From positions 2,294,001 through 2,358,000 of the forward strand of contig NZ_CP063194.1 in the NCBI RefSeq assembly GCF_028609865.1: 64,000 nucleotides of DNA, in the 5' to 3' direction. The stretch is from Corynebacterium jeddahense (GTDB lineage Bacteria > Actinomycetota > Actinomycetes > Mycobacteriales > Mycobacteriaceae). The notes under the pieces were generated by a model, which was not told the origin of the DNA, did not search any database, and saw only the letters and a list, made by a program, of their open reading frames with translations. Positions 5,168 to 59,084 of this stretch are shown here, piece by piece (the first letter of the stretch is position 1; each line of letters begins with the position of its first letter). The position numbers were made by a program, and so were the translations under genes.

Positions 5168-6487
5168 TTACCCGAGGCTGCGGCCGAGAGCGTGCAGCTC
5201 CCACCCGGCCTGCTGCCACTGTTCGACGGGGAGGACGTTGCGGCCGTCGATGAGCACTTGCTTCTCGACGAGCTCCGCCGCGTGAACCGGGTCCATCTGC
5301 TTGAACTCGTCCCACTCGGTGGCCAGGATGACAAGCTCCGCTCCGGTGAGCGCGTCCTCGAGGGAGGCGGCGTAATCCAGCGTGGGGAACACCTTCCGGG
5401 CGTTGTCCATGCCTTGCGGGTCGTAGACGCGCACCGCGGCACCGGCAAGCGAAAGCTGACCCGCGACGGCAAGGGCAGGCGAATCGCGCACGTCGTCGGA
5501 ATTCGGCTTGAACGCCGCACCCAGCACCGTGATCCGCTTGCCGATCAGCGAGCCCAGCACCTCCCTGCTCAGATCGATCACGCGCTGGCGGCGGCGCATG
5601 TTGATCGCGTCGACCTCGCGCAAAAACGTCAGCGCCTGGTCCGCGCCCACCTCGCCGGCGCGCGCCATGAACGCGCGGATGTCCTTCGGCAGGCACCCGC
5701 CACCGAACCCGAGACCGGCGCCGAGGAACTTGCGGCCGATGCGGTCGTCGTGGCCGATGGCGTCGGCAAGCTGGGTGACATCTGCGCCGACGATCTCGCA
5801 GACCTCGGACACGGCGTTGATAAATGAGATCTTGGTGGCCAGGAAGGCGTTGGCGGAGACTTTCACCAGCTCCGCGGTCTGCAGATCCGTGACGATGAAC
5901 GGGGTGTTGTTCGCGAGCGGGGTGGCGTACACCTCCCGCGCGATCGCTTCGGCGTTGGAACCGGCCTGTACGCCCAGCACGATGCGGTCCGGTTCAATGG
6001 TGTCTTTCACCGCGTAGCCCTCGCGGAGGAACTCGGGGTTCCACGCGATCTCGACGGTGGTGCCCGGCTGTGCAAGCTTGTCGGCGCGCTCCTGCAGCGC
6101 CGCCGCGGTGCCCACCGGGACGGTGGACTTACCCAGGATCAGGTGCTCGCCCTCCAGGTGCGGCACCAGCGAATCGATCACCGCCTCCACGTACCGGGTA
6201 TCTGCCGCGTACGAGCCGCGCTGCTGCGGGGTACCCACGCCGATGAAGTGAACGTTGGCGAACTGGGCGGCTTCTTCGTAGTTGGTGGTGAAACGGAGCC
6301 GTCGAGAAGCGATATTGCGCTCGAGCACCTCGGGCAGGCCCGGCTCGTAGAACGGGACCCGGCCGTTTTGCAGGGCCTCGATCTTCGCCTCGTCCACGTC
6401 CACGCCCAGCACCTCGTGGCGGAGCTCCGCCATGCACGCCGCGTGCGTCGCACCCAGGTAACCAGTACCAATCACAGTCATCCGCAT
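5168..6487 (-). CDS. ugd: UDP-glucose 6-dehydrogenase
   Basis: A 439-residue UDP-glucose/GDP-mannose dehydrogenase family protein. It oxidises UDP-glucose to UDP-glucuronate with two NAD+, supplying uronic acid for envelope glycans. The sequence shows an N-terminal Rossmann motif GTGYLG, the NPEFLREG motif in the first domain, and the catalytic-cysteine motif GGGCLPKD at about residue 265. The length is usual for the bacterial enzyme. The start at 6487 (MRMTV) is used; an in-frame ATG two codons later is equally possible. It is divergent from the fic gene across 183 bp and transcribed alone. A long hairpin lies past its stop codon. Confidence 0.93.
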   Translation of the reverse strand: MRMTVIGTGYLGATHAACMAELRHEVLGVDVDEAKIEALQNGRVPFYEPGLPEVLERNIASRRLRFTTNYEEAAQFANVHFIGVGTPQQRGSYAADTRYVEAVIDSLVPHLEGEHLILGKSTVPVGTAAALQERADKLAQPGTTVEIAWNPEFLREGYAVKDTIEPDRIVLGVQAGSNAEAIAREVYATPLANNTPFIVTDLQTAELVKVSANAFLATKISFINAVSEVCEIVGADVTQLADAIGHDDRIGRKFLGAGLGFGGGCLPKDIRAFMARAGEVGADQALTFLREVDAINMRRRQRVIDLSREVLGSLIGKRITVLGAAFKPNSDDVRDSPALAVAGQLSLAGAAVRVYDPQGMDNARKVFPTLDYAASLEDALTGAELVILATEWDEFKQMDPVHAAELVEKQVLIDGRNVLPVEQWQQAGWELHALGRSLG

Positions 6488-6547
6488 AACAGGCCATTAT
6501 GCCTGGGGATGGACGGTTCGGCAGCGCGGGAAATGAGCTGGGCGAAT

Positions 6548-6656
6548 TTGCAATGTTGCAATCAAGAGGCGCTGCTGCGAGACCTTAATTGCAAAAACCG
6601 CCGATTTTGCAAAATAGGGGGGCGCTGGGGCGCTTATAATTGCAGTATTGCAATTA
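6548..6656 (+). promoter_or_regulatory. Fic promoter with TTGCAA repeat array
   Basis: TTGCAA occurs at 6548, 6556, 6589, 6607 and 6648. The last is part of a perfect inverted repeat TAATTGCA-GTAT-TGCAATTA (6637-6656). A consensus -10 TATAAT lies at 6635-6640 and overlaps the palindrome, so a protein bound there would block transcription. A strong ribosome site AGGGGGAG follows before the ATG at 6671. This looks like a multi-site operator for fic; the binding protein is unknown. Confidence 0.6.
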
Positions 6657-6670
6657 ACCGAGGGGGAGAT

Positions 6671-7879: not shown

Positions 7880-7910
7880 GTAAGGGCCCTTCGCTTATCG
7901 ACGTTTCCGT

Positions 7911-8345: not shown

Positions 8346-8363
8346 GGGTCGCTCCTCTCGCCA

Positions 8364-8390: not shown

Positions 8391-8678
8391 CGGTTGGGTT
8401 GCGAACAAGGAGTTTCGCCGAGTGACCACGGATTTCCGCCGGTCAATGCCCCTTCATTATTGGCAACCAGTTTCATTAGTGGGTGGTGGTGCGGTGGGAC
8501 CGGAGGTCGTCGATAAGCAGGCTGCTCCGAGGTGGAGGTGGGCCGTCAGACAAATCGAGCTTCCCGCCGATTTTTGTGCAGGTAGCTCGATCTTGGTAGC
8601 TGCATCTTGAGGCAAGCGGGCGCTGTCAGGAGGTACCTTGCTTCTAGTCATCGTTTTCCGACCCGAGAAAGACCCCAG
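8391..8678. other. Intergenic region without a recognisable gene
   Basis: Between the Cys/His-rich gene and the secreted protein at 8679 no convincing reading frame is seen. It contains one copy of the dispersed motif GCTTATCGACG (8508-8518, minus) and two copies of GGTAGCT near 8580-8600. The last part should hold the promoter of the downstream gene. Confidence 0.5.
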
Positions 8679-9392: not shown

Positions 9393-9956
9393 CTACTGGA
9401 AGTTGAGGTACGCCTTCGACGGCGTCGGCCCGCGCTGGCCCTGGTACTTGGAGCCGAGCGCGGACGATCCGTAGGGGATCTCGGCCGGCGAGGTCATGGC
9501 GAACAGCGCGAGCTGGCCGACCTTCATGCCCGGCCACAGCGTGATCGGCAGGTTGGCCACGTTGGAAAGCTCCAGCGTGATGTGGCCGGTGAAGCCCGGG
9601 TCGATGAAGCCGGCGGTCGAGTGCGTGAGCAGACCGAGGCGGCCGAGGGAGGATTTGCCTTCGAGGCGGCCGGCGAGGTCGTCGGGAAGCGTGAAGCGCT
9701 CCAGCGTCGCACCCAGGACAAACTCGCCGGGGTGCAGCACGAACGGCTCGCCCTCGGGCACCTCGACGAGCGTGGTCAGGTCGGGCTGCTCCAGCTTCGG
9801 ATCGATGTGCGTGTAGCGCTGGTTATTGAACACCCGGAACAGGCTGTCCAGGCGCACGTCGATCGAGCTCGGTTGAATCAGCCCTGCGTCGAAAGGCTCA
9901 ATGAGGAGCCTTTGCTTATCGACGGACTCACGGATATCACGATCAGAAAGCAGCAC
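9393..9956 (-). CDS. dcd: dCTP deaminase
   Basis: A 187-residue enzyme of the dCTP deaminase/dUTPase family. It converts dCTP toward dUTP or, in the bifunctional form known in actinobacteria, directly to dUMP, supplying thymidylate synthesis. Visible family motifs are PSSIDVRL near the N-terminus, [11 protein letters not shown], and [18 protein letters not shown], which holds the catalytic glutamate. The C-terminal [19 protein letters not shown] tail is typical of the family. The start codon is GTG at 9956. A tRNA-Gly gene follows on the other strand. Confidence 0.95.
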
Positions 9957-12040: not shown

Positions 12041-12044
12041 CGCG

Positions 12045-13436
<1,392 letters not shown>

Positions 13437-15201: not shown

Positions 15202-16389
15202 TCACAGCCCGACGCTGATGAGTTGCTGCTGCACGCGCGTCGCGGCTTCGTCGATGCGCGCCTCCGGGATGTAGCCGTTCTGCACGCACCAGACGATGTG
15301 GTCGATGATCCGCGGCAGGTCCGCGCCGGAGGACCACAGCGCTTGGTCGGCGCCGGAGCCGATCGCGCGGGCCACCGCGTCCATCGTCGGCGCGTAGTCG
15401 AGGATGCCGCGCATGCCGGACAGGTCGTCGGTGACCACGACGCCGTCGAACGGCACCCCGCCCGGGTAGTCGCCGGTGCGCAGCAGTCTGTATGCCTCCG
15501 GGTTCATCGAGCTGGGGACCCCCTCGGGGCCGAGCCCGGGCACGATCATGTGGCCCATCATCACACTTGCCTGCGGGAACGCGGCCAGGAGCGGGCCGTA
15601 GGGGCGCAGGTCGCTGCCGCGCAGGTCGTCGATCGGCGGGGTGACGGCGAGCTGCAGGTGGGTGTCGCCGGACGCGCGCCCGTGGCCGGGGAAGTGCTTG
15701 AACGTCGGGGTGACGCCAGCGTCGATAAGCCCCTGCGAAAACAGGCCCGCCACGCGCGCGACCTCGTCCGGGTTCCCGTTAAACGAGCGGTCCCCGACGA
15801 TGTCGAGGCCCGCGACGTCGAGGTCGAGCAGCGGCGCGTAGTCCACGTTCACCCCGTAGGCCCGCAGCGAGCGCCCGATGTCCCAGCCGGTGCCGCGGAT
15901 CACCTCGGGCGGCGTGCCGGCGAGCGCGCGCGGCGGCATGAAATCGCCGAACACCTGCGTGTGCCGCTGCACGCGCCCGCCCTCGAAGTCGATGGCCACC
16001 GAGAAGGGGCGCTGGTACTCCTCGCGCAGGGCGTTGATGTTGCGCCCCGGCTCGGTGAGCAGCGCCGGGTCCGCCCAGCTCGGGATGATCACCCCGCCGA
16101 CCCCCTGATCGAGCGCGAATCGCGCCTGGTCGTAATCGGCCACCCCCACCACCATGAGGGTGGCCACCCGCGCGCGCAGATCCTCCGGTACCCGCAGCTG
16201 CGCAGGGGTCGGGGCGTGTTGCGTATCGACGCCCTCCGGCGCCGCCTGCGTCGACAACGCCGGCTGCGCAGACTCGTCCGGTGCCGCCGTCTCAACCGCG
16301 TCCTCCTCGCCGCACCCGGCCAGGCCCAAGGCGGCGACGCAGGCGAGCGCCGGCGCGAGGAGCGCCGCAGCGACGACCCGAGCCCTCAT
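15202..16389 (-). CDS. GH3 beta-N-acetylhexosaminidase lipoprotein (LpqI/NagZ-like)
   Basis: A 395-residue glycoside hydrolase family 3 enzyme expected to release N-acetylglucosamine from peptidoglycan fragments. The N-terminus is a lipoprotein signal with lipobox LAGC near residue 26. The signature KHFPGHG (His general acid/base loop of NagZ-type GH3) and the nucleophile-region TDDLSGM are both present. The ATG at 16389, preceded by GGGGCGAGA, starts the signal peptide; longer starts were rejected. It is divergent from the DUF2613 protein and AftD, the same neighbourhood as lpqI-Rv0236A-aftD in Mycobacterium tuberculosis, which supports the call. Confidence 0.9.
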   Translation of the reverse strand: MRARVVAAALLAPALACVAALGLAGCGEEDAVETAAPDESAQPALSTQAAPEGVDTQHAPTPAQLRVPEDLRARVATLMVVGVADYDQARFALDQGVGGVIIPSWADPALLTEPGRNINALREEYQRPFSVAIDFEGGRVQRHTQVFGDFMPPRALAGTPPEVIRGTGWDIGRSLRAYGVNVDYAPLLDLDVAGLDIVGDRSFNGNPDEVARVAGLFSQGLIDAGVTPTFKHFPGHGRASGDTHLQLAVTPPIDDLRGSDLRPYGPLLAAFPQASVMMGHMIVPGLGPEGVPSSMNPEAYRLLRTGDYPGGVPFDGVVVTDDLSGMRGILDYAPTMDAVARAIGSGADQALWSSGADLPRIIDHIVWCVQNGYIPEARIDEAATRVQQQLISVGL

Positions 16390-16702: not shown

Positions 16703-19606
16703 GTGCGGGGGATGCGCGCACACCTCGCGGGCTGGCTCGCGCTGGTTCTGCTCGTGCTCGCCCAGCCGCCCGGGCGGGTGGCGGCGGACACGAAGTTCGA
16801 TCTCGTCGCGGATCCGGCCCGCTTCCTCGCGCGCGCCACGCACGCCTACACCGACGGGTTCCCGCTGGGTCAGGTGCAAAACCAGGCCTACGGCTACCTC
16901 TTCCCCCACGGGCCCTTCTTCCTCCTCGGCCACCTGCTACGCGTGCCCGACTGGCTGATCCAGCGCGCGTGGTGGGCGCTGCTGCTGTGCCTCGCGTACT
17001 CCGGCACGCTCGCCCTCGCTCGGCGCGTCGGTGTGCGCGGCACCCTCCCCCAGGTGCTCGGCGCGGCGTGCTACGCGCTGAGCCCGCGCATCCTCACCAC
17101 CCTCACGGCGATCTCGTCGGAGGCCTGGCCCGTCGCCCTCGTGCCGTGGACGCTCCTCCCGCTCACCGGGCGCAAACCCCGCGTCGCGCCCGCCCTTATC
17201 GCCGTGGCCTGCATGGGCGCGGTCAACGCCGCGGCGACGATGGCGGCCTGCCTGCCCGCGTTCGTCCTGCTGCTCGCCCGGCGCGCGCCGAAGCAGGCGG
17301 CGGGGTTCGCGCTCGGCGCCGCTGCCGTGTCCGCGTGGTGGATCGGCCCGCTCATCGTCCTCGGGCGCTACTCACCCCCGTTTACGGAGTTCATCGAGTC
17401 CGCGCACGTGACCACGGCCTGGCTCAACCCCGTGGAGATCCTGCGCGGCACGACGAGCTGGACGCCCTTCGTCGACACGGAGCGCGCCGCAGGCCACCTC
17501 CTCGTCGCCGAGCCCGCGTTCATCATCGCCACCTGTCTCGTCGCCGCAGCGGGGCTCGCGGGGCTGGCGCGCCGCGACATGCCGTGGCGCGGCCCGCTCA
17601 TCACCGTCTTCGCCGTCGGGTTCGTCGTCCTCGGGTCCGCCCACATGTGCACCACGCTGTACGACGGGGCCCTGGCCCCCTTCCGCAACCTGCACAAGTT
17701 CGACCCGCTCGTGCGTCTCCCGCTCGCCCTCGGCGCGGCGCACCTCGCGTCTCGGGTGGACCGGCCGCGGGCCGTGGCCGTCGCGCTCGCCGCCGCGGTG
17801 GCGCTCGCCCCCGCGTGGTCACTGCGCCTGCTGCCGGAGGGCACGTGGCGGGAGGTGTCCCAGGACTGGGTCGCGGCCGGGCAGTGGCTCGACGAGCACG
17901 CGGCAGGCACCCGCACCCTGGTAGTCCCGCCCGCGCAGTTCGCCCGCCAGACGTGGGGGTGGACGCGCGACGAGCCGATCCAGGCGCTCACCGCCAGCCG
18001 CTTCGCGTTTCGGGACGCGGTGCCGCTCGTGGACCCGGAGGCGATTCGGGGGCTCGATGGGCAGGCGGAGCTCGTCGATACGCAGGCGCTGCGCTCGATC
18101 GGGGTGGGCGCGGTGGTGGTGCGTCGCGACCTCGAGCGGCAGCCGCCGACGCCGAACCTCGGCGAGCCGGCCGCGAGCTTCGGGGACCTCGACATTTTCC
18201 TGCTCGACCCAGACCGCGACGTCATGGTCACCGACCGCGCGCCGGTGGCGGTCGACGGCGGCGGCGAGGTGCTGCCGCTGCTGTGGCGCGAGCTGGGCTA
18301 CTTCCCGGCGCGTCTTACCGGCGAGCACCCCGACATCGTCACCGATACCCCGGCGCTCGCGGCGCGCAACTACGGCGCGATCCGCGGGCAGGGCGGGTAC
18401 CTCGCCGGCGGGTGGGAGGACTCGACGGTGGCGAACCGGCTGAAGGACTACCCCTCGGACGGCACGCGCACCGGCGTCGCCGAGGACGGTATGGCGCGCG
18501 CGTCCTCTTCCGCCGCGGACGCGGGCGCGTTCGGCGGGCCCGACCCGTCGAAGTCGCTCACCGCCGCGTTCGACGGTCTCGCGGAAACCGCCTGGTGGCC
18601 AGCCCCCGGGGACGCGCACCCGTGGATCGAGTTCGTGTCGCAGCAGGAGACCATCTCCGTCACCGCCACCGCGGACACCACCGTGCGACTGTGCGACGGG
18701 CAGCGCGCCTGCCGCAGCGTCTCCCTGGTGAAGGACCAACCCCGGCAGCTCAGCCGCCGCGGCGCGACCATCCTCGAACTCACGGGGCGCGTCGGCATCC
18801 GCGAGCTCGACGTCGGCGTGCGCCGCATCGTCGAGGTCGAGGGCACCGCAGACCGCTACTTCTTCCAGCGCCACTTCCCGGACAACACCGTCATCCAGCG
18901 CCGCTTCACCACCGCCGAGGACGCGACGTGGCAGCTCTCCGCCCCCGCCACCATCGACGGCGAGCGCCGCGTCGGCAGCGTCACCTTGCCCGCGGGCACG
19001 CACGAGCTGTTCACCCGGGCAGAGACGGTGATGCTCTCGTGCGCGCCCCTGCCGGAGCGCACCGGGGACACGCTCGTGCTCACCACCCGTGCGTTCAACT
19101 CGGGCCTGCGCGCCACCCTCGGGGGCACGCCGCTCGAGCCGGTGCGTCTCGACGCTGGCGCCCAGGCCTTCCGCGTCCCCGCCGGGGCCAGCGGCGAGTT
19201 CGCCATGACGTTCGCGGGCGAGGACGCGTACCGCTACTCCCTCATCTTCGGCGGCGCGTTCAGCCTGCTCGCCGTCGCCGCGTGCGTGTTGCTGACCCGG
19301 CTGCGCGAGGACGGGCCGTACGCGCCGCCCGACGCCGTCGGCTGGGTGCCCGCCGCAGCCGCGGTCGCCGCCTTCCCGCTCCCGGGCCTCGCTGCGGTGG
19401 CGCTCGCGTGGGTGGTGCGCCGCTTCACAGTGCTGGACACCTCCCGGGTCGCGGCCGCCGCCATGGCCGTGTGCGGGCTCGTCCTCGCCCGCGCCCCGTG
19501 GCCCACGGCGCACTACGCCGGCTCGTCCACCTTCCTCGTCGCCGCCGGGTGCTTCGCGGTGGCCTGCCTCACCAGCCGCGCGCCGGGCACCTCCACGAGC
19601 TCGTAG
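16703..19606 (+). CDS. aftD: Alpha-(1->3)-arabinofuranosyltransferase AftD-like (DUF3367)
   Basis: A GT-C type membrane glycosyltransferase of about 967 residues that should add alpha-1,3-linked arabinofuranose from decaprenyl-phosphoarabinose to arabinan. The N-terminal half carries many membrane helices and a first-loop acidic motif (TKFDLVADPARFL). The C-terminal half is a large extracytoplasmic region with a discoidin/carbohydrate-binding-like part (DPSKSLTAAFDGLAETAWWPAPG), then three helices at the end. The GTG at 16703 has GGAAG about 8 nt upstream; the in-frame ATG at 16712 is an alternative. It is shorter than the mycobacterial protein (about 1400). Its 3' end overlaps the opposite-strand acyltransferase by 94 bp. 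Confidence 0.87.
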   Translation: MRGMRAHLAGWLALVLLVLAQPPGRVAADTKFDLVADPARFLARATHAYTDGFPLGQVQNQAYGYLFPHGPFFLLGHLLRVPDWLIQRAWWALLLCLAYSGTLALARRVGVRGTLPQVLGAACYALSPRILTTLTAISSEAWPVALVPWTLLPLTGRKPRVAPALIAVACMGAVNAAATMAACLPAFVLLLARRAPKQAAGFALGAAAVSAWWIGPLIVLGRYSPPFTEFIESAHVTTAWLNPVEILRGTTSWTPFVDTERAAGHLLVAEPAFIIATCLVAAAGLAGLARRDMPWRGPLITVFAVGFVVLGSAHMCTTLYDGALAPFRNLHKFDPLVRLPLALGAAHLASRVDRPRAVAVALAAAVALAPAWSLRLLPEGTWREVSQDWVAAGQWLDEHAAGTRTLVVPPAQFARQTWGWTRDEPIQALTASRFAFRDAVPLVDPEAIRGLDGQAELVDTQALRSIGVGAVVVRRDLERQPPTPNLGEPAASFGDLDIFLLDPDRDVMVTDRAPVAVDGGGEVLPLLWRELGYFPARLTGEHPDIVTDTPALAARNYGAIRGQGGYLAGGWEDSTVANRLKDYPSDGTRTGVAEDGMARASSSAADAGAFGGPDPSKSLTAAFDGLAETAWWPAPGDAHPWIEFVSQQETISVTATADTTVRLCDGQRACRSVSLVKDQPRQLSRRGATILELTGRVGIRELDVGVRRIVEVEGTADRYFFQRHFPDNTVIQRRFTTAEDATWQLSAPATIDGERRVGSVTLPAGTHELFTRAETVMLSCAPLPERTGDTLVLTTRAFNSGLRATLGGTPLEPVRLDAGAQAFRVPAGASGEFAMTFAGEDAYRYSLIFGGAFSLLAVAACVLLTRLREDGPYAPPDAVGWVPAAAAVAAFPLPGLAAVALAWVVRRFTVLDTSRVAAAAMAVCGLVLARAPWPTAHYAGSSTFLVAAGCFAVACLTSRAPGTSTSS

Positions 19607-20565
19607 GAGACGTACGCCACGGCCGTCGTCGCCAGCGCCGTCGCCGCGTACACGAGCAGGAAGTGGCCGCCGAAGACCGGCACCCCGAGCACCGGGAAGA
19701 CGAAGTACAGCACCGCCATGTGCCAGAGGAACACCGAGTAGGACCAGCGCCCCAGCGTGCGCATCGTGGCCGAGGACAGCACGGTGCCGCGCTCCCGCGG
19801 CCCCAGCGCGTAGGGCGCAACGACGAGCGCGGCGAACAGCGCGCCCAGCAGGACCCGCGCGTTGAACTCGGCAGGTGACGGGTGGGTGAGCCCACGCGGG
19901 CCGATCACGCCCGCGAACCACGCCACGGGCAGCGCGGAGAGCGGGAACGGCCAGCGCGGCCCCCGGTAGGCCACCCCGGCGCGCTCCAGCTCGGCGAGCG
20001 CAAGCCCGACGGCGAACCACAGCGCGTACGAGGGCGGCCAGATCTGCAGGTTGAGCACCGCGGAGTCCTCGATGCCCGCCACGGCCCACGGCCACGCCAG
20101 CCCCGCCGCCACCGCGGCGGCGAGCGCCACGCGCCGGCCCCGCCCGCCGAGGCGCAGGTACGCGGGCAGGACGACGTAGAACGCGGCCTCGACGCACAGC
20201 GACCACATCTGCGTGAGCCCGTCGATAAGCGAATGCGGCACGTAAAGCTGCAGCAACAGCAGGTTCGCCGCCGCCTGCGCCCACGACACCCCCGCGAGCG
20301 GCGGGAGCGCGAGCAGCACGACGGCGACGCACACCACGTACGCCGGCGCGAGCCGCGCCACCCGCCGCGCCGCGTAGCCCGGGCGCATCCCGCCGCGGGC
20401 GAGCAGGAACGCCGACAGCGCGAAGAACACCGCCACGAAGTAGTCGAAGCGCTCGAGTACCGCCGAACCCGTCGCGGTCTGGAACGCGACGTGCGTGGCC
20501 ACGATGCCGTACGCGGCGACGGCGCGCAGGCCGTCGAGCTCTGGCAGAAGGGGCGGTCTGTTCAC
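19513..20565 (-). CDS. tmaT: Acyltransferase family 3 membrane protein, probable TmaT
   Basis: A 350-residue integral membrane acyltransferase. The family hallmark LDGLRAVAAYGIVATHVAF at residues 10-28 includes the conserved His, and about ten membrane helices follow. In Corynebacterium glutamicum the acyltransferase 3 protein TmaT acetylates trehalose monocorynomycolate before export; TmaT, an AftD-like gene, MtrP and pck lie close together there, so orthology is likely but inferred. The C-terminus is basic. The coding end runs 94 bp into the antisense of aftD. A divergent unit (20603) starts 37 bp upstream. Confidence 0.75.
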   Translation of the reverse strand: MNRPPLLPELDGLRAVAAYGIVATHVAFQTATGSAVLERFDYFVAVFFALSAFLLARGGMRPGYAARRVARLAPAYVVCVAVVLLALPPLAGVSWAQAAANLLLLQLYVPHSLIDGLTQMWSLCVEAAFYVVLPAYLRLGGRGRRVALAAAVAAGLAWPWAVAGIEDSAVLNLQIWPPSYALWFAVGLALAELERAGVAYRGPRWPFPLSALPVAWFAGVIGPRGLTHPSPAEFNARVLLGALFAALVVAPYALGPRERGTVLSSATMRTLGRWSYSVFLWHMAVLYFVFPVLGVPVFGGHFLLVYAATALATTAVAYVSYELVEVPGARLVRQATAKHPAATRKVDEPA

Positions 20566-45476: not shown

Positions 45477-45977
45477 CTAGGAGCAGAGGTTGGCGCGCGC
45501 GGTGTCGCTCAGCAGGGCGGCCACGGCGGACGCGTCCATGTCGGTGCGGCGCTGCTCCACGAGCTGCCCGGCGACCGCGTCGCGGGTAATCGGATCGTTC
45601 GCGCACACGGTAGCGCCGGTGGCTGTGAGCTGATCCTCAATACCGTCGACGTTGACTCCACTTTCCTTGAGATGGTCCAGGTACGCCTGCTCCTGCGGCG
45701 AGTAGGTGGGCACCATCGTCGCCGGCGCGTCCACCTCGCGCGCCGGCTGGTCCTCGTAGGAGCCCTCGCGTATCGACGTGCTCCGCTCCGTCACCGTCGC
45801 CGTCGAGGCCGACGTGGTTGCGGTCGCGGTTGCGTCGGTCGCGCCCGTGGACGCCGCCGCGGTGGTGCTCGTCGCCCCGGACTCCGTCACGTCGTCCGAG
45901 TCCACGGTCGCGCCGCCGCACGCGGCGAGCGTTGCGGCGCTGGCGAACGTCGCCAAGCAAAATGCGAACTTGCGCAC
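45477..45977 (-). CDS. DUF732-type lipoprotein
   Basis: A 166-residue lipoprotein: signal peptide with lipobox LAAC near residue 20, then a Thr/Ala/Ser-rich linker. The C-terminal domain of about 80 residues (YLDHLKESGVNVDG ... TARANLCS) holds two cysteines that may pair. It resembles the DUF732 family of secreted actinobacterial proteins of unknown function. The GTG start shares one base with the stop codon of the upstream mycolyltransferase, so it is translationally coupled to it, suggesting a role in the same envelope layer. Confidence 0.7.
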   Translation of the reverse strand: MRKFAFCLATFASAATLAACGGATVDSDDVTESGATSTTAAASTGATDATATATTSASTATVTERSTSIREGSYEDQPAREVDAPATMVPTYSPQEQAYLDHLKESGVNVDGIEDQLTATGATVCANDPITRDAVAGQLVEQRRTDMDASAVAALLSDTARANLCS

Positions 45978-49417: not shown

Positions 49418-51259
49418 CTATTCGCTGGGGTCGTTTGCGGTCTTCACCGTCACGGGCCACGCGATCTGCGTGCCGCTCTCGCCCGGGTCCTCGCCTCGCC
49501 GGATCGCCTTGCGGGTGGCTGGGTCGAGGTAGGCCCCCGGGTCGTCGTGAAGCGTGAGCGTTCGGCCCTTGCCCACGGAGTACCGCACGTTCGCCCAGAA
49601 CCGCTGCCAACTCATCGGCTCGCGCGAGGTGGCCAGCAACTCGGCGATCTCGGGGGTGCGCAGCGCCGCGCGGGCCTGCTTCGCGCGCAGGGGGTTGATG
49701 AACGCGGGCAGCCTGTCCAGGTCGGTGCCGGAATCGGCGGCCTGCCACGCCGGGTCGAGCTGCTTGTCGTGGCCGATGCGCCCGCCGGGGATGCGCGGCA
49801 TGCGCGCCGCGATCGGGGTGGCCAGGCCGACGGTGTCCAGCACGCGCACGTCGAGCGGCGCGTTCATGCTGGTCATGCCCAGGTTGATGAGGTAGGCGGT
49901 GAGGCCCAGGTTGTTCAGGTCGGTCTCCGCGTCGACGCGGTCGCGGTAGAACCACTTGTAGATCTCCGGATCCGCGCTCACGTAGGCCAGGTTGAGCTGC
50001 GCGGCCTCCGCATCGATGCCGTCTTGCAGCGCGTCCTCCCAGTTCTGCATGAGTTTCGAGCCGAGGAAGTCCTCCGCGTGGCGCGGGGGATCGCCGAGCT
50101 CGCGGCCGAGGGCGAGGGTCCAGAACTCGCGCTCGTCGACGATGCCGAGCTCCTTCTCCCCCGTCTGGTACGCCTCCCAGTCGATGGGGTGCGCGCGCAC
50201 GATGGTCACCCCGCCCCACACGGCGACGGCCGCGGTGAGCGCGACGCTCGCGCGGCTCACCGGCACCGCCATGACGGGCAGCAGCAGCGCGAACAGCGGC
50301 AGCAGCCACATGCGCCCGTGCATGAAGTCGCCGCCCACGCGCAGGACGTAGACGATGTGCGCGAGCGCGCACCCCACCACTACAAGGGCGATTGCTAATC
50401 GACGCCCACGGGTCCCCACGAGCAACCACCAGCCGAGCGCCACCGCGCCGAGGAGCGGCAGCCACAGCCAGTAGTAGCCGGCGAAATCCCAGAGGTACTC
50501 GAACCCGCTGCCCCACTCCGCGCCGGAGGCCGACTTCGCCACCGCCGTGTGCGGGGTGAGCAGGCCGTAGTAGCCCATGCGGAACAGCTCGTACGCCGCC
50601 GGCACCGGCAGCGCCGCGGCGAGGATGCCGCCAGTCTTGCGCGGGGCGTACGCGATGAGCATGATCCCGGTGACGCCGCCGTAAAGCGCCAGCTCCGGGC
50701 GCACGAGCCAGGACAACCCGCACCAGAACGCGAGGAGGTAGCCCACCGGCGGCATGCCGTGGCGGGTCGGCCGGTCGGGCGCCGCCCACGCGACGAGCAG
50801 GGCCCACCACACCGCGATCCAGAGCAGGGACAAACCCCACTCGAGCCCGGAGGTGGCGAAGTCGCGGGCGGGCGGGAGCGCGAGGTAGATGAGGATGCCG
50901 AACGGGACGACGTAGTGCGCGCCGCCCTTGGTGAACCAGTAGCGGCCGGAGGCAAACGTCGATACGCATGCTGCCGCGACGGTGCACACGAGCGCGAGCC
51001 ACATGGCGACGTCCTCGAGGCGCGCGCCGGTGAGCCACGCGCACGCGGCGATGAGGTACTGCCACAGCGTCGAGGTGTTGGCCTCGACGCGCTCGCCGGC
51101 GTTGAACACGGGGCCGTTGCCGGCGAGGATGTTGCGCACGGTGCGCAGGACGATAAGGCCGTCGTCCGACATCCAGCGCCGGGTCCACCCGCCCCAGAAC
51201 GCAGCGACGCCCGCCATTGCGGCCGCGAGCAGCGCGGAGAGGCGGGCGTTGTTGGTCAT
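49418..51259 (-). CDS. aftB: Terminal beta-(1->2)-arabinofuranosyltransferase AftB
   Basis: A 613-residue GT-C membrane glycosyltransferase that adds the terminal beta-1,2 arabinofuranose to arabinan, creating the site for mycolate attachment. The first-loop catalytic motif RRWMSDDGL places two Asp at residues 32-33. About ten helices fill the N-terminal two thirds, and the last 200 residues are periplasmic. The position between the mycolyltransferase and ubiA matches Rv3805c. The start ATG at 51259 lies 25 bp after the ubiA stop. Confidence 0.94.
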   Translation of the reverse strand: MTNNARLSALLAAAMAGVAAFWGGWTRRWMSDDGLIVLRTVRNILAGNGPVFNAGERVEANTSTLWQYLIAACAWLTGARLEDVAMWLALVCTVAAACVSTFASGRYWFTKGGAHYVVPFGILIYLALPPARDFATSGLEWGLSLLWIAVWWALLVAWAAPDRPTRHGMPPVGYLLAFWCGLSWLVRPELALYGGVTGIMLIAYAPRKTGGILAAALPVPAAYELFRMGYYGLLTPHTAVAKSASGAEWGSGFEYLWDFAGYYWLWLPLLGAVALGWWLLVGTRGRRLAIALVVVGCALAHIVYVLRVGGDFMHGRMWLLPLFALLLPVMAVPVSRASVALTAAVAVWGGVTIVRAHPIDWEAYQTGEKELGIVDEREFWTLALGRELGDPPRHAEDFLGSKLMQNWEDALQDGIDAEAAQLNLAYVSADPEIYKWFYRDRVDAETDLNNLGLTAYLINLGMTSMNAPLDVRVLDTVGLATPIAARMPRIPGGRIGHDKQLDPAWQAADSGTDLDRLPAFINPLRAKQARAALRTPEIAELLATSREPMSWQRFWANVRYSVGKGRTLTLHDDPGAYLDPATRKAIRRGEDPGESGTQIAWPVTVKTANDPSE

Positions 51260-52280: not shown

Positions 52281-52780
52281 TAGATCCTCTTCTCCGCCTC
52301 GATGGCCACCTTCGCCGCGCCCACGCCGAGCGCGGCGCCCGCGAGGGTGTCAGTTGGGTAATGGACGCCGAGCACGTTACGCGAGAGCATCATCACCGGC
52401 ACGAGCAGCCACGGCGTCTTCCTGCCCGTGATGTCCGCGAGGTGCGCCGCCGCCGCGGCCGTGTTCGCCGCGTGCGAGGAGGGAAACGACAGCTGGGACG
52501 GCGTTTTCACCCCCACCTTCACGCGCTCGTCGCTCGGCCGCGGGCGCCGCACAATGCGCTTGAGCACCACGGTCGCCGCGTGCGCCGCGAAGGTTCCCGC
52601 CCCGAGGGCGAGCCACTTCGAGCGCCGTTGCTTATCGACGATTGCACCTCCGGCCGCGAGCGCCAACCACCCGAGGTCGTGCTCGCCGAAGTGGCTCAAC
52701 GCCCGCGCCGCCTTCACGGTCGCTTGGCTGTAGGCCAGGTCCTGGATCGCGACCAGGAGCTTCGTTTCTTTACTGGGCAT
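52280..52780 (-). CDS. PAP2 family phosphatase (Rv3807c-like)
   Basis: A 166-residue membrane phosphatase expected to dephosphorylate decaprenylphosphoryl-5-phosphoribose to the ribose form. The three PAP2 motifs are visible: KRIVRRPRPSDE, FPSSHAAN and SRNVLGVHYPTDTLAG. The start at 52780 (MPSKETKLL) overlaps the glfT2 stop by 11 bp; a longer in-frame start would run inside glfT2 and was rejected. It sits between glfT2 and ubiA as in other mycolata. Confidence 0.9.
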   Translation of the reverse strand: MPSKETKLLVAIQDLAYSQATVKAARALSHFGEHDLGWLALAAGGAIVDKQRRSKWLALGAGTFAAHAATVVLKRIVRRPRPSDERVKVGVKTPSQLSFPSSHAANTAAAAAHLADITGRKTPWLLVPVMMLSRNVLGVHYPTDTLAGAALGVGAAKVAIEAEKRI

Positions 52781-54731
52781 CGAACACCTTCCCCCAGTTC
52801 TCGCGGTTGGATAGCTCCGGGCGCGCCTCACGGTAGGTGCGCTTGAGTTCGGGCCAGCGTTGCTGGATCTGTTCGCGGAGCTGTTTCTGTTCGTTGGCCA
52901 GGTCGTCGGCAAGCTGCTTGTTCCTCTTGCGGAAGGCCACGCCCGTGCCGCCGGCTGTAGACACCGTCGCCGAGTCGAGGCGGGCGAGTGTGAACCAGCG
53001 CGCCTCCTCCGCGGTGAGGTTGAGTTGCGGGGCGTCCCAGTGGCCTTTGTCCTCAGGCTTGGTCAGGTGCAGCAGCGCCTTGGCCGCCCACGGCAGCTTC
53101 TTCACCTTGGCCAAGCGCCCGCCGATCTTCTTCGTGGGCACGCCCGGCGCGCCCGTGGCCGCGGGCAGGTCGGCGGCCGAGGGCACGATCTGCGCGTCCG
53201 AGTAGTTGGAGCGGATGCCCTGGATTCGCGGCAGCGAGGATTCGAGGATGTCGAAAAGCTGGTCGGGGCCGGCGAGGAAGTCGCGCATCGCCTCGTTTTG
53301 AATCGCGATTGTGGAGTACTCCATGCACATGTAGTGCTTGTGCGTGGACTTTCGCATGTTCTTCAGCATCGCCTCCGGGTTCTCGGGCCCATAGATCGCC
53401 GCGACGATCAGACGGTTGCGCATGTGGTAGTAGGCCTGCCAATCGATCGCGTCGTCCTTGTCCGCCCATGCCATGTGCCAAATGGCCACGCCGGGCCAGG
53501 TGACCGTCGGGAAGCCTGCTTCCTCTGCGCGGAAGGCGTACTCGTTGTCGTCCCACTTGATAAACAGGGGCAGCGGCAACCCGATCCGCTCCGCCACCAC
53601 GCGCGGGATGAGGTCCATCCACCATCCGTTGTAATTCACGTCGATGCGGCGGTGCAGCGGGCGCGAGGTGGTCTTCCTCGGGTCCAGGTCCTCCTCGTCC
53701 GTGCCCACGTAGCCGAGCGGGTACTTGGCAAAATCGTGATCGTACACCGCGTGCTCGGCGGCGCGGAACATGAAGATGTCCTTGTCCACCGTCTCACCCG
53801 TCGTCCGCAGCTGCGAGCGATCCTGCAGGTTGAGCATCTGCCCGCCGACCAGGAAAGGCGACTTCGCGTACCGGGCCACCTGCACCGCACTGGCGATGGA
53901 GTCCGGCTCGATGGCGATGTCGTCGTCCATGTACAAGATGAACGGCGCGTCGGTGCTGCTGAGGGCCTCGTACATAATGCGTGCGTACCCACCCGAGCCG
54001 CCCAGGTTGCCCTGCGGGAAGATGGTCAGCTTGCCGCCCAAGTTCTTCTCGGCCTCGGCGAAATCGGGCTCATCCGCCGGGTGCTGGTTGCCCTGGTCCG
54101 GCATGAGCACATCCGTGATGCACTCGGCCACGAACGGGTCCTCCGCCAGCGCGTGCAGCGCGTTGACGGCGTCGCGCGGCCGGTTGAACGTCGGAATGCC
54201 GACGGCGACGTGTTTGGGCTGCGGGGGGACGACGGAGCCGTCGGCAAGCAATTGCTTCTTGGGCGCGTGCGGGGCGACCCACGCGGCCTGCGAGACGGTG
54301 GTGTCCTCGTCCGCGGTGAGGTCGAACCAGAGCCAGCCGCCGTCCTCGAAGTTCGCGAGCTTCAGCGGGATTTCCGTGTACCCGCTGGCGTCGACGTTGG
54401 TCACGCTGATGCGGGTGCCGTCGTACTTCGAGCGGTACACGGACACGGTGGCGCGGCCGGTGACGTCGAGCGCGAGGATGACCTCGTCGAGCTGCGACCA
54501 GCGGCGCCAGTAGCTCGCCGGGAACGCGTTGAAGTATGTTTCGAAACTCACCTCTTGGCCCGCCGGGACCGTGAACTGCGTGCGGGTGTCCCAGCCCAGG
54601 CGCTGCGTGTTCTGCTCCGGCTCGATGAGGTAGAGCATGCGCACATCGCGCGGCTCGCCCTTCTTCGGCATGAGGATGCGGGCAAGGACGCGGTCGGCGT
54701 CTTGGTTTGCGTGCTGATCCACGGCTCTCAC
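52770..54731 (-). CDS. glfT2: Galactofuranosyltransferase GlfT2
   Basis: A GT2 family enzyme of about 653 residues that polymerises galactan by adding alternating beta-1,5 and beta-1,6 galactofuranose from UDP-Galf. The N-terminal beta-sandwich (FNAFPASYWRRWSQ) is followed by the GT-A domain with the YMDDDIAIEPD metal motif at about residue 267 and the WDDNE catalytic motif at about residue 394. A helical C-terminal part ends the protein. The GTG at 54731 is used because it aligns with known N-termini; GTG 54722 is also possible, and no ATG fits. It opens the arabinogalactan operon. Confidence 0.94.
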   Translation of the reverse strand: MRAVDQHANQDADRVLARILMPKKGEPRDVRMLYLIEPEQNTQRLGWDTRTQFTVPAGQEVSFETYFNAFPASYWRRWSQLDEVILALDVTGRATVSVYRSKYDGTRISVTNVDASGYTEIPLKLANFEDGGWLWFDLTADEDTTVSQAAWVAPHAPKKQLLADGSVVPPQPKHVAVGIPTFNRPRDAVNALHALAEDPFVAECITDVLMPDQGNQHPADEPDFAEAEKNLGGKLTIFPQGNLGGSGGYARIMYEALSSTDAPFILYMDDDIAIEPDSIASAVQVARYAKSPFLVGGQMLNLQDRSQLRTTGETVDKDIFMFRAAEHAVYDHDFAKYPLGYVGTDEEDLDPRKTTSRPLHRRIDVNYNGWWMDLIPRVVAERIGLPLPLFIKWDDNEYAFRAEEAGFPTVTWPGVAIWHMAWADKDDAIDWQAYYHMRNRLIVAAIYGPENPEAMLKNMRKSTHKHYMCMEYSTIAIQNEAMRDFLAGPDQLFDILESSLPRIQGIRSNYSDAQIVPSAADLPAATGAPGVPTKKIGGRLAKVKKLPWAAKALLHLTKPEDKGHWDAPQLNLTAEEARWFTLARLDSATVSTAGGTGVAFRKRNKQLADDLANEQKQLREQIQQRWPELKRTYREARPELSNRENWGKVFDAQ

Positions 54732-56933: not shown

Positions 56934-57068
56934 CGGAGGTTGTTGGCGATAGCGCATGACAGGCCCAAAAAGCGGGCAGTCTTCTGCCTAAATCAGCGCG
57001 TTGAGCTCTATCGCTGTATGGTCTCGGGTGATCTGCGGGCCGAAGGGGCGTCGATAAGCGAAAGGCCC

Positions 57069-57428
57069 CTACCGCAACCGCCGGGGAGGCGCGAGGGCGT
57101 CGCGCTCGGCGGCGAAGACCATGCTGTCGAGCTCCGCGAGCACCGCGTCCACGTCCGCGGGGTTGTAGCCGCGCTCGGTGCGGGCGTTCTCCAGCTCGGC
57201 GGTGGCGGCGGCCAGGGCCATGTTCTGCACCTCGATGGCGGCGGCGCAGGCCTGCTCAAACGCCTCGCGGCGCTCCCGGGAACTCTCCTTCCCTACGTGG
57301 CGGCGTTCGGCCAGCGCGTCCTGCCACTCCTGGACCATGGAGTACGACTCCGGGGCGAGCTTCGGCCCGTGTTCCTGGACGGTGTGGCGCGCGGCCTCGT
57401 ACGCGCGCTCGTTGAGCTCGGTAGCCAC
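57069..57428 (-). CDS. Free-standing copy of the antiporter C-terminal tail
   Basis: A 119-residue helical protein that resembles the last 120 residues of the upstream antiporter: ELNERAYEAARHTVQEHG matches ELNQRAYAAARKAVKQHG, and RGYNPADVDAVLAELDSM matches RQYNPADVDAVLADLDKL. The GTG start at 57428 lies 57 bp after the antiporter stop, so it may share its mRNA. The copy could be a soluble regulator of the channel, or the remnant of a second antiporter. It keeps an intact frame of normal composition. Confidence 0.7.
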   Translation of the reverse strand: MATELNERAYEAARHTVQEHGPKLAPESYSMVQEWQDALAERRHVGKESSRERREAFEQACAAAIEVQNMALAAATAELENARTERGYNPADVDAVLAELDSMVFAAERDALAPPRRLR

Positions 57429-57485
57429 GCCGCCGCCGCGGGCGTCCGGCCCACGAAAACTGTCACCGGCACGGTGTAGAAGTAG

Positions 57486-59084
57486 TTACTCTTCCGGCTC
57501 CCACTTCACCATGGTGCTGGGTGTGGCAAGCGCGCTGCGGTCGCGGGCGAGAATCAGCTTGTCCAGGTCTGCCAGCACCGCGTCGACGTCGGCGGGATTG
57601 TACTGGCGTTCGCGGCGGGCCTGCTGCAGCTCCCGGCTCGCGGCCCGCAGCGCGACTTCCTGCATCTGCAACGCCCCGGTGCGTGCACGCTTGAAGGCCT
57701 CCTTGCGCTCCTCGGACCCTTCGGGATCCTGCAGGCGCTTCTCCGCGATGGAATCCAACCACTCCTGCACCATCGCGTACGCCTCCGGCGCGTACTCCTC
57801 GCCGTGCTGCTTCACCGCCTTGCGCGCGGCGGCGTACGCGCGCTGGTTCAGCTCCTCAATGGCCTTGTCCCCGCCCGGCCCATTTTGCAGGTCAAGCTTA
57901 TCGACGAGCCAAGGTAACAACAGCCCCGGCACCACCATCGTGCAGGTGAGGACGGTGAGCGCGATGACTGAGAGCTCGTAGTGGTAACTCGTCGCCGACG
58001 CCGGGATGGACAAAACGAGCGCAAGCGTGACCAGGCCGCGCATGCCGGACCACGCCATCAGCAGCACCTCCTGCAGCCGCAGCGGGGAGACGTTCGTGCG
58101 GCCGCGCTTCGTGTTCATCTTGTACAGCACCCACATCCAGCCGAAGCGCACGGCGAACGCCACGAGGGACAGCACCACGCCCACCTGCACCGCCTGCCAG
58201 ATGTGCGTGCCGGCGGTGTCGATGGCGTCGCGCACGCTCATGCCGATCAGGCCGAACGCCACACCGGTGAACAGCAGCTCCACCGTTTCCCAGAAAGAGT
58301 GGCCGGTGAGGCGGTCTTCGGCCGTCATGGCGGAGCGGGACGACATCTCTACCGCCGCGATGACGATGGCAATCACGCCCGAGGCCTCGATCGCCTCAGC
58401 ACCGGCATAGATGGCAAACGGGAGCACCCACGTGAATGCGGTGCGGATAACGGAGTCCGGCACAGAGTTGGCGAACATGGCGGCGAGCCTGCCCACCACC
58501 AGGCCGATGACCACAGCGGCGATCGCCGCGTAGAGGAATTGGAAGAACCCTTTACTGAAGTCCACTTCACCATGCGCCACCGCCGCAGACATGGCCACGT
58601 TGAAGGTGACGATGGAGGCGGCGTCGTTGAACAGGCCCTCCGTCTGCAAGGTGCCGGTGATGCGTTTCGGGATGCCGGCCGGGCCTGCCACCGCGTCCAC
58701 AGCCACCGGGTCCGGCGGGGCAATCGCGGCGGCGAGCACCATCGCAGTGGCCAGGCTCAGCCCCGGCAGCATCCACATTGCCGTGGCCGTCAGCGCCGCG
58801 ATGGTGAGAAACACCAGGATCACCGACATGGTCAGCACCACGTTGAGTTGCGAGCCAATCTGCCCCCAGCTCGTGCGCCTCGCCAACGACCACAACAGCG
58901 GCGGCAGGAAGATGGGCAGGATCAGGTGCGGCGGTATGGACACCGTCTCGATCCCCGGTATGAACAGCACCGGAGCAACAACGACGGTGAGCAGCGCCGG
59001 CCACGGCAACCCGGTGCGCTCGCCAATCGCGGCGACAAAGACGGTGGCGAGCAGCAGCCCGATAAGTGCAATGAAAGTTCCCAC
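57486..59084 (-). CDS. Na+/H+ antiporter (CPA1 family)
   Basis: A 532-residue cation/proton antiporter with about 12 helices, of the NhaP/NHE type. The core motif AAAIAPPDPVAVDAVAG holds the ion-binding Asp. A long C-terminal cytoplasmic tail (about 130 residues, helical, EELNQRAYAAARKAV) follows the last helix. It should export Na+ (or K+) in exchange for protons for pH and salt balance. The start ATG at 59084 is used. The downstream gene carries a duplicate of its tail. Confidence 0.9.
   Translation of the reverse strand: MGTFIALIGLLLATVFVAAIGERTGLPWPALLTVVVAPVLFIPGIETVSIPPHLILPIFLPPLLWSLARRTSWGQIGSQLNVVLTMSVILVFLTIAALTATAMWMLPGLSLATAMVLAAAIAPPDPVAVDAVAGPAGIPKRITGTLQTEGLFNDAASIVTFNVAMSAAVAHGEVDFSKGFFQFLYAAIAAVVIGLVVGRLAAMFANSVPDSVIRTAFTWVLPFAIYAGAEAIEASGVIAIVIAAVEMSSRSAMTAEDRLTGHSFWETVELLFTGVAFGLIGMSVRDAIDTAGTHIWQAVQVGVVLSLVAFAVRFGWMWVLYKMNTKRGRTNVSPLRLQEVLLMAWSGMRGLVTLALVLSIPASATSYHYELSVIALTVLTCTMVVPGLLLPWLVDKLDLQNGPGGDKAIEELNQRAYAAARKAVKQHGEEYAPEAYAMVQEWLDSIAEKRLQDPEGSEERKEAFKRARTGALQMQEVALRAASRELQQARRERQYNPADVDAVLADLDKLILARDRSALATPSTMVKWEPEE

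What the first reader, a model, noticed from the sequence alone, without database searches (positions are those of the whole stretch)
5260..57906. Dispersed 11-bp motif GC[T/G]T[A/C]TCGACG, 28 copies on both strands
The same short word recurs in unrelated genes and gaps. Plus-strand copies start near 5260, 7893, 8234, 9914, 11110, 16221, 23202, 25110, 27874, 31544, 37821, 45768, 50394, 52630 and 57896. Minus-strand copies start near 6300, 8508, 15720, 18073, 20220, 25513, 29664, 30467, 37580, 42226, 48692, 50957 and 57049. Main forms are GCTTATCGACG, GCGTATCGACG and GCTTCTCGACG, with two GCTAATCGACG and two off by one base; GCGTCTCGACG was not seen. At uniform composition about 0.1-0.2 copies are expected for this many variants. 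Copies in genes use different reading frames (VDTQ, VDKQ, LLLDA), so DNA rather than protein is conserved. None lies in 1-5259 or 57907-64000, the parts with repeats or lower GC. Orientation is balanced (15:13). It could be a DNA-uptake or recognition word, a methylation or nucleoid-protein site.
Basis: seen in the sequence. Interest (0 to 1): 0.85.

Follow-up and report, generated by a model that had tools for sequence, protein, structure and literature searches.

The report
Genus-wide DNA uptake tag in Corynebacterium
Hundreds of copies of one short DNA word, spelled slightly differently from species to species, are scattered over both strands of most genomes of one bacterial genus (Corynebacterium, going by its nearest named relatives), and the word likely works as a self-recognition tag for taking up DNA from close kin, something so far known mainly from two distant families of bacteria.

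Summary
The word is real and genome-wide. GCKTMTCGACG occurs 30 times in the window and 885 times in the 2.57-Mb genome (448 forward, 437 reverse; reversed control 15). The full word is split: GCKT-NN-CGACG plus about 30 following bases rich in C and poor in G, absent after near-miss words. Codon preference is excluded (119 genic copies against 7.8 in synonymous shuffles). Strict copies show no replication or gene-strand bias and change in place by substitution. In the genus, 186 of 242 genomes have at least 250 copies of GCTTNNCGAYG, 46 fewer than 150. Species use dialects (CGACG or CGATG; different NN); one genome instead has 1106 copies of CGCGRCGTCA. None of 295 other genomes of the phylum is comparably dense. 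One transposon-rich island has 1 copy where about 15 are expected. This resembles DNA uptake sequences (DUS/USS), likely read by a Tad-pilus, ComEA and ComEC machine. Against it: those genes are also in word-poor genomes, no receptor was found, and no uptake was measured. New variant of a known kind.

The parts
854..864 (+). NN-variant copy GCGTGCCGACG
5260..5270 (+). word copy GCTTCTCGACG
5761..5771 (-). NN-variant copy GCTTGCCGACG
6300..6310 (-). word copy GCTTCTCGACG
7893..7903 (+). word copy GCTTATCGACG
8508..8518 (-). word copy GCTTATCGACG
9680..9690 (-). NN-variant copy GCTTCCCGACG
9914..9924 (+). word copy GCTTATCGACG
13139..13149 (-). NN-variant copy GCTTGCCGACG
15720..15730 (-). word copy GCTTATCGACG
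16221..16231 (+). word copy GCGTATCGACG
18073..18083 (-). word copy GCGTATCGACG
20220..20230 (-). word copy GCTTATCGACG
20734..20744 (+). NN-variant copy GCGTTTCGACG
23202..23212 (+). word copy GCGTATCGACG
24440..24450 (-). NN-variant copy GCTTCCCGACG
25110..25120 (+). word copy GCTTCTCGACG
25513..25523 (-). word copy GCGTATCGACG
27875..27885 (+). word copy GCTTCTCGACG
28881..28891 (+). NN-variant copy GCGTTTCGACG
29664..29674 (-). word copy GCGTATCGACG
30467..30477 (-). word copy GCTTCTCGACG
31544..31554 (+). word copy GCGTATCGACG
32490..32500 (-). NN-variant copy GCTTGACGACG
33423..33433 (+). NN-variant copy GCGTTTCGACG
36346..36356 (-). NN-variant copy GCTTTACGACG
37580..37590 (-). word copy GCGTATCGACG
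37821..37831 (+). word copy GCGTATCGACG
38870..38880 (+). NN-variant copy GCGTTCCGACG
39304..39314 (-). NN-variant copy GCGTCACGACG
42226..42236 (-). word copy GCTTCTCGACG
42330..42340 (+). NN-variant copy GCGTGACGACG
42891..42901 (-). NN-variant copy GCGTACCGACG
44049..44059 (-). NN-variant copy GCTTGACGACG
45768..45778 (+). word copy GCGTATCGACG
45948..45958 (-). NN-variant copy GCTTGGCGACG
49543..49553 (-). NN-variant copy GCTTCACGACG
50957..50967 (-). word copy GCGTATCGACG
52630..52640 (+). word copy GCTTATCGACG
52904..52914 (-). NN-variant copy GCTTGCCGACG
53505..53515 (-). NN-variant copy GCTTCCCGACG
54239..54249 (-). NN-variant copy GCTTGCCGACG
57049..57059 (-). word copy GCTTATCGACG
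57896..57906 (+). word copy GCTTATCGACG

Best explanation
GCKT-NN-CGACG followed by a C-rich tract is a chromosome-wide DNA word that likely acts as a DNA uptake sequence: a still unidentified receptor on the predicted Tad/Flp-pilus, ComEA and ComEC import machine would bind it on free DNA, so that DNA of close kin would be taken in and recombined in preference to foreign DNA. Shown here: the excess, the split word with its one-sided C-rich tail, balanced strands of the strict word, species dialects, in-place turnover by substitution, near absence from one acquired island, and genes for ComEA, ComEC and a Tad locus in the genome. Inferred: that the word raises uptake, that copies build up because transformation spreads alleles that carry it (molecular drive), and that the receptor is a Tad minor pilin or ComEA. 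Untested: competence of this organism and any binding.
For: (1) Excess: 885 strict copies genome-wide against 15 for the reversed pattern; 151 against 6.1 expected in 464 kb, with most one-base variants at background. (2) Not coding: 54 sense, 65 antisense, 29 intergenic and 3 edge copies; 119 genic copies against 7.8 +/- 2.3, maximum 15, in 200 synonymous shuffles; broad word 271 against 36.7 +/- 5.4. (3) DNA-level element: the 29 bases after the word are C-rich and G-poor at 151 strict copies (C .476, G .226) and at 180 copies with other NN (C .452, G .256; C exceeds G for each of the 14 other NN forms, n 3 to 34), but not after near-miss words (168 GCKCNNCGACG: C .347, G .333; 706 other TCGACG words.351.331); the tail is seen at sense, antisense and intergenic copies. 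(4) No polarity: 448 to 437; 69 leading to 82 lagging in the sample, p = .33, replichores inferred from GC skew. (5) Dialects: G298 and G301 use GCTTNNCGATG, G302 prefers NN = GC, G372 NN = CT; in G298 and G301 the C-rich tail follows CGATG, in the own genome the few CGATG forms (17) hardly have it. (6) Genus survey with GCTTNNCGAYG: 186 of 242 genomes with at least 250 copies, 10 with 150-249, 46 below 150 (my tally of its table). (7) Switch: G308 has 1106 copies of CGCGRCGTCA (555/551); the other 241 genomes have at most 103 (structure of the word). (8) In-place turnover: of 17 own sites alignable to G299, 0 have a gap, 7 remain the word, site identity .856 against flank .754, while random 11-mers are identical in .143. 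(9) Word-poor relative: of 12 G402 sites, 10 align to G339 and 0 survive there. (10) Foreign DNA: the site-poorest of 20 stretches (L008, 1 broad copy; mean of the other 19 is 14.7, Poisson 6e-6) holds four open frames with transposase or integrase-core domains, two P-type ATPases and a multicopper oxidase. (11) Machine genes: comEA-comEC and a Tad locus with ATPase and two T2SSF proteins. In Micrococcus luteus, an actinobacterium with comEA and comEC homologs, Tad/Flp pili are required for transformation (PMC4322843 and PMC6370729, passages).
Against: No uptake, binding or competence was measured and no receptor was found. ComEC is encoded in 61 of 61 genomes tested (36 word-rich, 1 intermediate, 24 word-poor), and the Tad ATPase has a strong match in 77 of 78 (38 of 39 word-rich, 39 of 39 word-poor; 76 over the cut-off, G524 just under it; the exception G462, a word-rich draft, has only a weak partial match). 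So machine presence does not predict the word. G339 and G426 lack any clear word yet have open frames aligning to nearly all of own ComEA, and to ComEC over its whole length (G339) or residues 3-447 of 555 (G426). The broad word is sense-biased in genes (164 sense, 107 antisense), although the strict word is not (54 to 65); this is unexplained. The C-rich tail is weak in G307 and absent in G302. Retention is weaker in G307: of 30 alignable sites, 4 gapped, 5 kept, site identity .71 against flank .68. No title or abstract start in my listings reports natural transformation of a Corynebacterium. Scarcity in acquired DNA rests on one island.
Confidence: 0.62

Rival explanations
1. A Chi-like site: the word, read as single strand with its C-rich 3' tail, would switch a helicase-nuclease from destruction to recombination, marking self DNA at double-strand breaks.
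For: Dispersed, strict and mostly genic, with a one-sided 3' context; it would also mark self DNA and differ between species.
Against: No orientation bias to replication: 69 to 82 in the sample, 448 to 437 overall; Chi in E. coli is strongly biased (recalled). A full switch to an unrelated word in G308 and loss in G339 would need matching changes in a core repair enzyme. Helicase-nuclease genes were not compared here.
Confidence: 0.14
2. A site for a chromosome-organising or nucleoid protein, or for a DNA modification enzyme, spread for chromosome function rather than for uptake.
For: Genome-wide spread over genes and gaps, density over 21 stretches not significantly uneven (chi-square p = .11); a split word with a two-base spacer resembles bipartite recognition.
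Against: The word is not palindromic, is mostly inside genes, and most near-misses are at background. Recognition sites of modification enzymes are not usually enriched 25-fold (recalled). Near absence from an acquired island and dialects fit poorly with structural need.
Confidence: 0.13
3. Codon or peptide preference, or a mobile repeat, produces the copies.
For: 50 of 54 sense copies sit in one reading phase; the broad word is sense-biased, 164 to 107.
Against: Synonymous shuffling removes most of the excess (119 to 7.8 strict, 271 to 36.7 broad); both strands, three antisense phases and intergenic copies; alignments to relatives show substitutions rather than insertions at most sites (0 of 17 gapped in G299, 4 of 30 in G307, 1 of 11 in named com loci).
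Confidence: 0.02

Closest known systems
DNA uptake sequence (DUS) of Neisseriaceae, with dialects (PMC3630211: abstract and section 6 read)
   Same: A short strict word in very many copies per small genome; variants fixed per species; a conserved core with changing positions; some relatives lack it.
   Different: Another word (split GCTT-NN-CGAYG), an extra C-rich 3' tract, an unrelated phylum; no ComP-like receptor, transformation or uptake shown. Copy numbers are lower: 250 to about 2000 of GCTTNNCGAYG against 943 to 5918 in section 6 of that paper.
Uptake signal sequence (USS) of Pasteurellaceae (flank tracts recalled; predicted minor-pilin receptor: PMC12616744, search listing and start of abstract only)
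   Same: Non-palindromic core with a one-sided extended 3' flank of about 30 bases (recalled for USS); dispersed on both strands.
   Different: The flank is C-rich here, A/T-rich in USS (recalled); the word is unrelated; no functional data here.
Tad/Flp-pilus dependent transformation of Micrococcus luteus (PMC4322843 and review PMC6370729, passages)
   Same: Actinobacterial comEA/comEC together with tad genes, the machine proposed here.
   Different: No uptake word in the M. luteus paper ('uptake sequence' has 0 occurrences in PMC4322843); M. luteus has two tad loci, here the T2SSF and ATPase profiles match one place only in the own genome.
Chi recombination hotspot (recalled)
   Same: Over-represented, non-palindromic, mostly in genes.
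   Different: No strand polarity here; longer, split word; dialect changes between species of one genus.

Membership tests
DNA uptake sequence (DUS/USS) | Short strict word far above chance over the whole genome | tested here: met
   885 against 15; 151 against 6.1 in a 464-kb sample; 119 against 7.8 in synonymous shuffles
DNA uptake sequence (DUS/USS) | Both strands, no replication polarity, in genes and gaps | tested here: met
   448/437; 69/82, p=.33; strict word 54 sense, 65 antisense, 29 intergenic, 3 edge; but broad word 164 sense to 107 antisense
DNA uptake sequence (DUS/USS) | Copies arise and decay in place by substitution | tested here: met
   G299: 17 sites, 0 gapped, 7 kept; weaker in G307: 30 sites, 4 gapped, 5 kept
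DNA uptake sequence (DUS/USS) | Related species share the word or a dialect of it | tested here: met
   186 of 242 genus genomes with >=250 copies; CGACG/CGATG and NN dialects
DNA uptake sequence (DUS/USS) | Scarce in recently acquired DNA | tested here: inconclusive
   One island: 1 copy against 14.7; n = 1
DNA uptake sequence (DUS/USS) | Host encodes DNA import machine (ComEC, ComEA, type IV filament) | tested here: met
   Own comEA/comEC and Tad locus; but also present in word-poor genomes
DNA uptake sequence (DUS/USS) | Cognate receptor (ComP-type minor pilin or equivalent) | not tested
   No receptor identified; ComP relatives were not searched for
DNA uptake sequence (DUS/USS) | Word raises uptake and transformation of DNA | not testable with these tools
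   Needs a bench assay
Chi site | Orientation bias along the replichores | tested here: not met
   69 leading, 82 lagging, p=.33 in the sample
Chi site | Modulates a RecBCD/AddAB/AdnAB-type enzyme | not testable with these tools
   -
KOPS / FtsK-orienting sequence | Strong polarity towards the terminus | tested here: not met
   As for Chi
Transcription-factor operator | Promoter location | tested here: not met
   119 of 151 inside called genes, sense and antisense
REP/MITE-type mobile repeat | Copies are insertions, usually with paired arms | tested here: not met
   Few gaps at sites; flank pairing no better than shuffled (3.89 against 3.90)

The most novel reading that the evidence does not exclude
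Corynebacterium runs a genus-wide sexual-isolation code: the first DNA uptake sequence system outside Neisseriaceae and Pasteurellaceae, read by a Tad/Flp-pilus import machine through a mycolate envelope, with a split word GCTT-NN-CGAYG, a C-rich landing tract, species dialects, losses, and one lineage (G308) that has replaced the whole vocabulary by CGCGRCGTCA.
Probability: 0.55. Interest if true: 0.93.

Novelty: new variant of a known kind. Interest (0 to 1): 0.86.

Why it matters
Self-specific DNA uptake is known mainly from two families of Gram-negative bacteria (recalled), and why it evolved is disputed. An independent case in a large actinobacterial genus, with many species, dialects, apparent losses and one full switch of word, would be a natural experiment on how such codes arise, change and vanish. 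It would suggest natural transformation in a genus of industrial and clinical weight, predict preferential recombination within species, and assign a role to the Tad and com genes that these bacteria carry.

Tried and rejected
Codon preference: rejected by synonymous shuffling. Hairpin or terminator: flank pairing equals shuffled pairing; close pairs are rarer than chance, not commoner. Mobile repeat: sites align with few gaps. Strand-polar site: no bias. Presence of machine genes as the cause of the distribution: ComEC in 61 of 61, strong Tad ATPase match in 77 of 78, T2SSF match in 76 of 80, 70 over the cut-off; the 4 genomes without a match and the 6 below the cut-off are all among the 44 word-poor ones, none among the 36 word-rich, which may reflect divergence of the family in a deep word-poor group, where tadB and tadC look fused in one frame. 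My first gene calls suggested that G426 lacked tadB/tadC; one search showed two T2SSF matches there, so I dropped that idea. A tree of three concatenated proteins from the Tad region of 20 genomes (two of the proteins found in 18 of 20) placed word-poor G339 with word-rich G402, and word-rich G302 among word-poor genomes; several nodes are weakly supported, so I count no events on it. Weak GGCGTC-type words in G304, G376 and G534 were not resolved. Outside the genus the strict word reached 170 copies in a 3.9-Mb genome of another family (G050; control 12; 11 of its 13 listed copies are GCGTCTCGACG) and 146 in G160 (control 24); not followed up. The plasmid search with the island transposase gave one Corynebacterium record among the 30 listed and was not followed. 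Paper searches for this word or for uptake sequences in Corynebacterium or Actinobacteria: in the titles and abstract starts listed, none reports it (all hits listed; 20 of 562, 15 of 42, 15 of 23); bioRxiv and most subscription papers are not held. PMC5217627 (passages), a spaced-motif survey, gives only CRISPR patterns for three Corynebacterium genomes in the passages seen.

Full report
What was checked. The window lies at 2,294,001-2,358,000 of a single 2,567,696-base contig. That genome has 448 forward and 437 reverse copies against 8 and 7 for the pattern read backwards.

What the word is. In a sample of 464 kb (20 stretches of 20 kb plus the window) there are 151 copies against 6.1 expected from an order-4 Markov model. 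Changing most positions drops the count to about expectation; positions 5 and 6 clearly tolerate other bases (a C at position 3 gives 5 against 1.2). All 16 dinucleotides occur at positions 5-6, so the word is GCKT-NN-CGACG: 331 copies in 460 kb of readable sequence, which would scale to about 1,850 per genome (inference). The 29 bases after it are C-rich and G-poor: C .476 and G .226 for the 151 strict copies, C .452 and G .256 for the 180 copies with other NN, against C .347, G .333 for 168 GCKCNNCGACG words and C .351, G .331 for 706 other TCGACG words. The tail is present whether the copy is sense, antisense or intergenic, so it is a property of DNA, not of coding. Upstream there is a weaker preference for GRGSC at -9 to -5 and TT at -2 and -1.

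What it is not. Shuffling synonymous codons within 350 called genes 200 times leaves 7.8 +/- 2.3 strict copies (maximum 15) where 119 are seen, and 36.7 +/- 5.4 broad copies where 271 are seen. Strict copies are sense 54, antisense 65, intergenic 29, edge 3 (gene calls by a crude model); 50 of 54 sense copies share one codon phase. The broad word is sense-biased (164 to 107, 60 intergenic or edge), which I cannot explain. There is no replichore polarity in the sample (69 to 82, p = .33; replichores inferred from GC skew) and close pairs are rarer than random (7 under 300 bases against 14.6 +/- 3.5). Flanks pair no better than shuffled flanks. Against relatives, sites differ mostly by substitutions: of 17 own sites alignable in G299, none is gapped, 7 remain the word and site identity is .856 against .754 for the flanks; in named com loci 11 sites, 1 gapped, 4 kept; in G307 30 sites, 4 gapped, 5 kept.71 against .68.

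Who has it. The genome's genus is Corynebacterium by inference: 10 of the 19 named ComEA loci found are Corynebacterium, at 43-72 per cent identity and the best ten hits, and a Pks13 gene is in the window. Within 242 genomes of the genus, the own one included, GCKTMTCGACG ranges from 2 to 1417 copies and GCTTNNCGAYG from 51 to 2032; by my tally 186 genomes have at least 250, 10 have 150-249 and 46 have fewer than 150, where reversed controls lie between about 22 and 150. Among 295 other genomes drawn from the phylum none reaches comparable density: the own genome has about 436 copies per Mb (10.9 times its control); the densest other that I find has about 119 per Mb with a control half of that, and the highest ratio is 44 copies to 7 in a 1.3-Mb genome (my reading). 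With the strict pattern, one genome of another family has 170 copies in 3.9 Mb against 12 (G050); that was not followed up.

Dialects and a switch. Unbiased gapped-word counts in 7 word-rich relatives put GCTTNNCGACG or, in G298 and G301, GCTTNNCGATG first in 6 and second in one (G299) (in the own genome a CRISPR array takes the top places). Preferred NN differ: AT in G299, G309, G533; CT in G372; GC in G302 and G298; GT in G301. In G298 and G301 the C tail follows CGATG (C .438/G .234 and .379/.215; near-miss controls .336/.292 and .327/.283), while in the own genome the 17 CGATG forms have .341/.288. The tail is weak in G307 and absent in G302. G308, poor in this word, has 1106 copies of CGCGRCGTCA, extended by TYAA, with its own near-misses at or near background; the other 241 genomes have at most 103. 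G339, G426 and G266 show no clear word in about 100-150 kb; G304, G376 and G534 show weak excess of GGCGTC-type words. Of 12 G402 sites 10 align to the word-poor G339 (72 per cent identity) and none survives there; of 13 G301 sites 5 align to word-rich G323 (79 per cent) and 3 survive. Numbers are small.

Surroundings. The own genome has comEA (L065 9912-10565, minus) and comEC (8241-9908) followed by a holA-like gene (name recalled) (Pfam HHH_3 and Competence) and a Tad locus beside a DEAD-box helicase: a TadZ-like gene (recalled; no Pfam match), ATPase, two T2SSF proteins, a DUF4244 protein of 75 aa, an unassigned protein of 98 aa and a protein with a TadE/G-like match just under the cut-off (L106 5931-10292). 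ComEC is encoded in 61 of 61 genomes tested, and the Tad ATPase strongly matched in 77 of 78, word-poor ones included. The only sampled stretch nearly free of the broad word is 910,001-930,000 (1 copy; 19 other stretches 7 to 20, mean 14.7), which carries four open frames with transposase or integrase-core domains, two P-type ATPases and a multicopper oxidase.

Mechanism. The set of properties (strict non-palindromic word, one-sided flank, both strands, in-place turnover, dialects, loss and replacement between related species, scarcity in an acquired island) is that of DNA uptake sequences. In Neisseriaceae eight dialects are described, with 943 to 5918 copies per genome, and five genomes of the family without an obvious one (PMC3630211, section 6). 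In M. luteus, an actinobacterium with comEA and comEC homologs, Tad/Flp pili are required for transformation (PMC4322843 passages; review PMC6370729 passages). I therefore propose that a receptor on the Tad/ComEA machine would bind GCKT-NN-CGACG with its C-rich tract on free DNA, and that copies would accumulate because transformed alleles bear the word. The receptor, the competence of these bacteria and the effect of the word are not shown. A Chi-like role and a chromosome or modification protein remain possible.

Novelty. No title or abstract start listed by my searches (some lists were capped) reports this word or an uptake sequence in Corynebacterium; the library lacks bioRxiv and most subscription journals. 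I file it as a new variant of a known kind, not as a proven member, since the functional defining features were not testable.

Noticed in passing
L004 (own genome 390001-410000): A long CRISPR array: 97 exact copies of the 26-mer CTCCCCGCGTGAGCGGGGATGAGCCC and 138 of its inner 12-mer in 20 kb.
   Followed up: no
L008 (own genome 910001-930000): Island with four open frames bearing transposase or integrase-core domains, two P-type ATPases, an ArsR-type regulator, a two-component system and a multicopper oxidase; nearly free of the word.
   Followed up: partly
G308 (L138-L141, L119, L077): A different dispersed word CGCGRCGTCA(TYAA), 1106 copies genome-wide, unique in the genus survey.
   Followed up: partly
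G325 (L130-L133, L123): A 12-13-copy longer repeat around CCCCTGGTATACTCC in 97 kb, unrelated to the word.
   Followed up: no
Tad loci L117, L120, L124, L125 and table: In a deep word-poor group tadB and tadC appear fused in one frame with two T2SSF domains, while most word-rich genomes seem to have two genes; many ComEC frames there are also longer.
   Followed up: partly
Own genome sample, broad word: Copies with NN other than AT/CT lie mostly on the sense strand of genes (broad word 164 sense, 107 antisense) while strict copies do not (54, 65); unexplained.
   Followed up: no
G050 (another family of the order): 170 copies of the strict pattern against 12 for the control in 3.9 Mb, 11 of the 13 listed being GCGTCTCGACG.
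   Followed up: no
G523 contig 13:122007-122782: ComEC match split into two neighbouring pieces in a word-rich draft genome; not examined further.
   Followed up: no
window 37838-42595: Pks13-type polyketide synthase of mycolate synthesis, over its curated cut-off.
   Followed up: no
window 59441-63200: Iron-type ABC transport genes: binding protein, ATPase and two FecCD permeases, in the lower-GC, word-free end of the window.
   Followed up: no
window 21-1796 and 2535-3596: Two ORFs of 591 and 353 aa without a Pfam match at 1e-5 near the start of the window.
   Followed up: no
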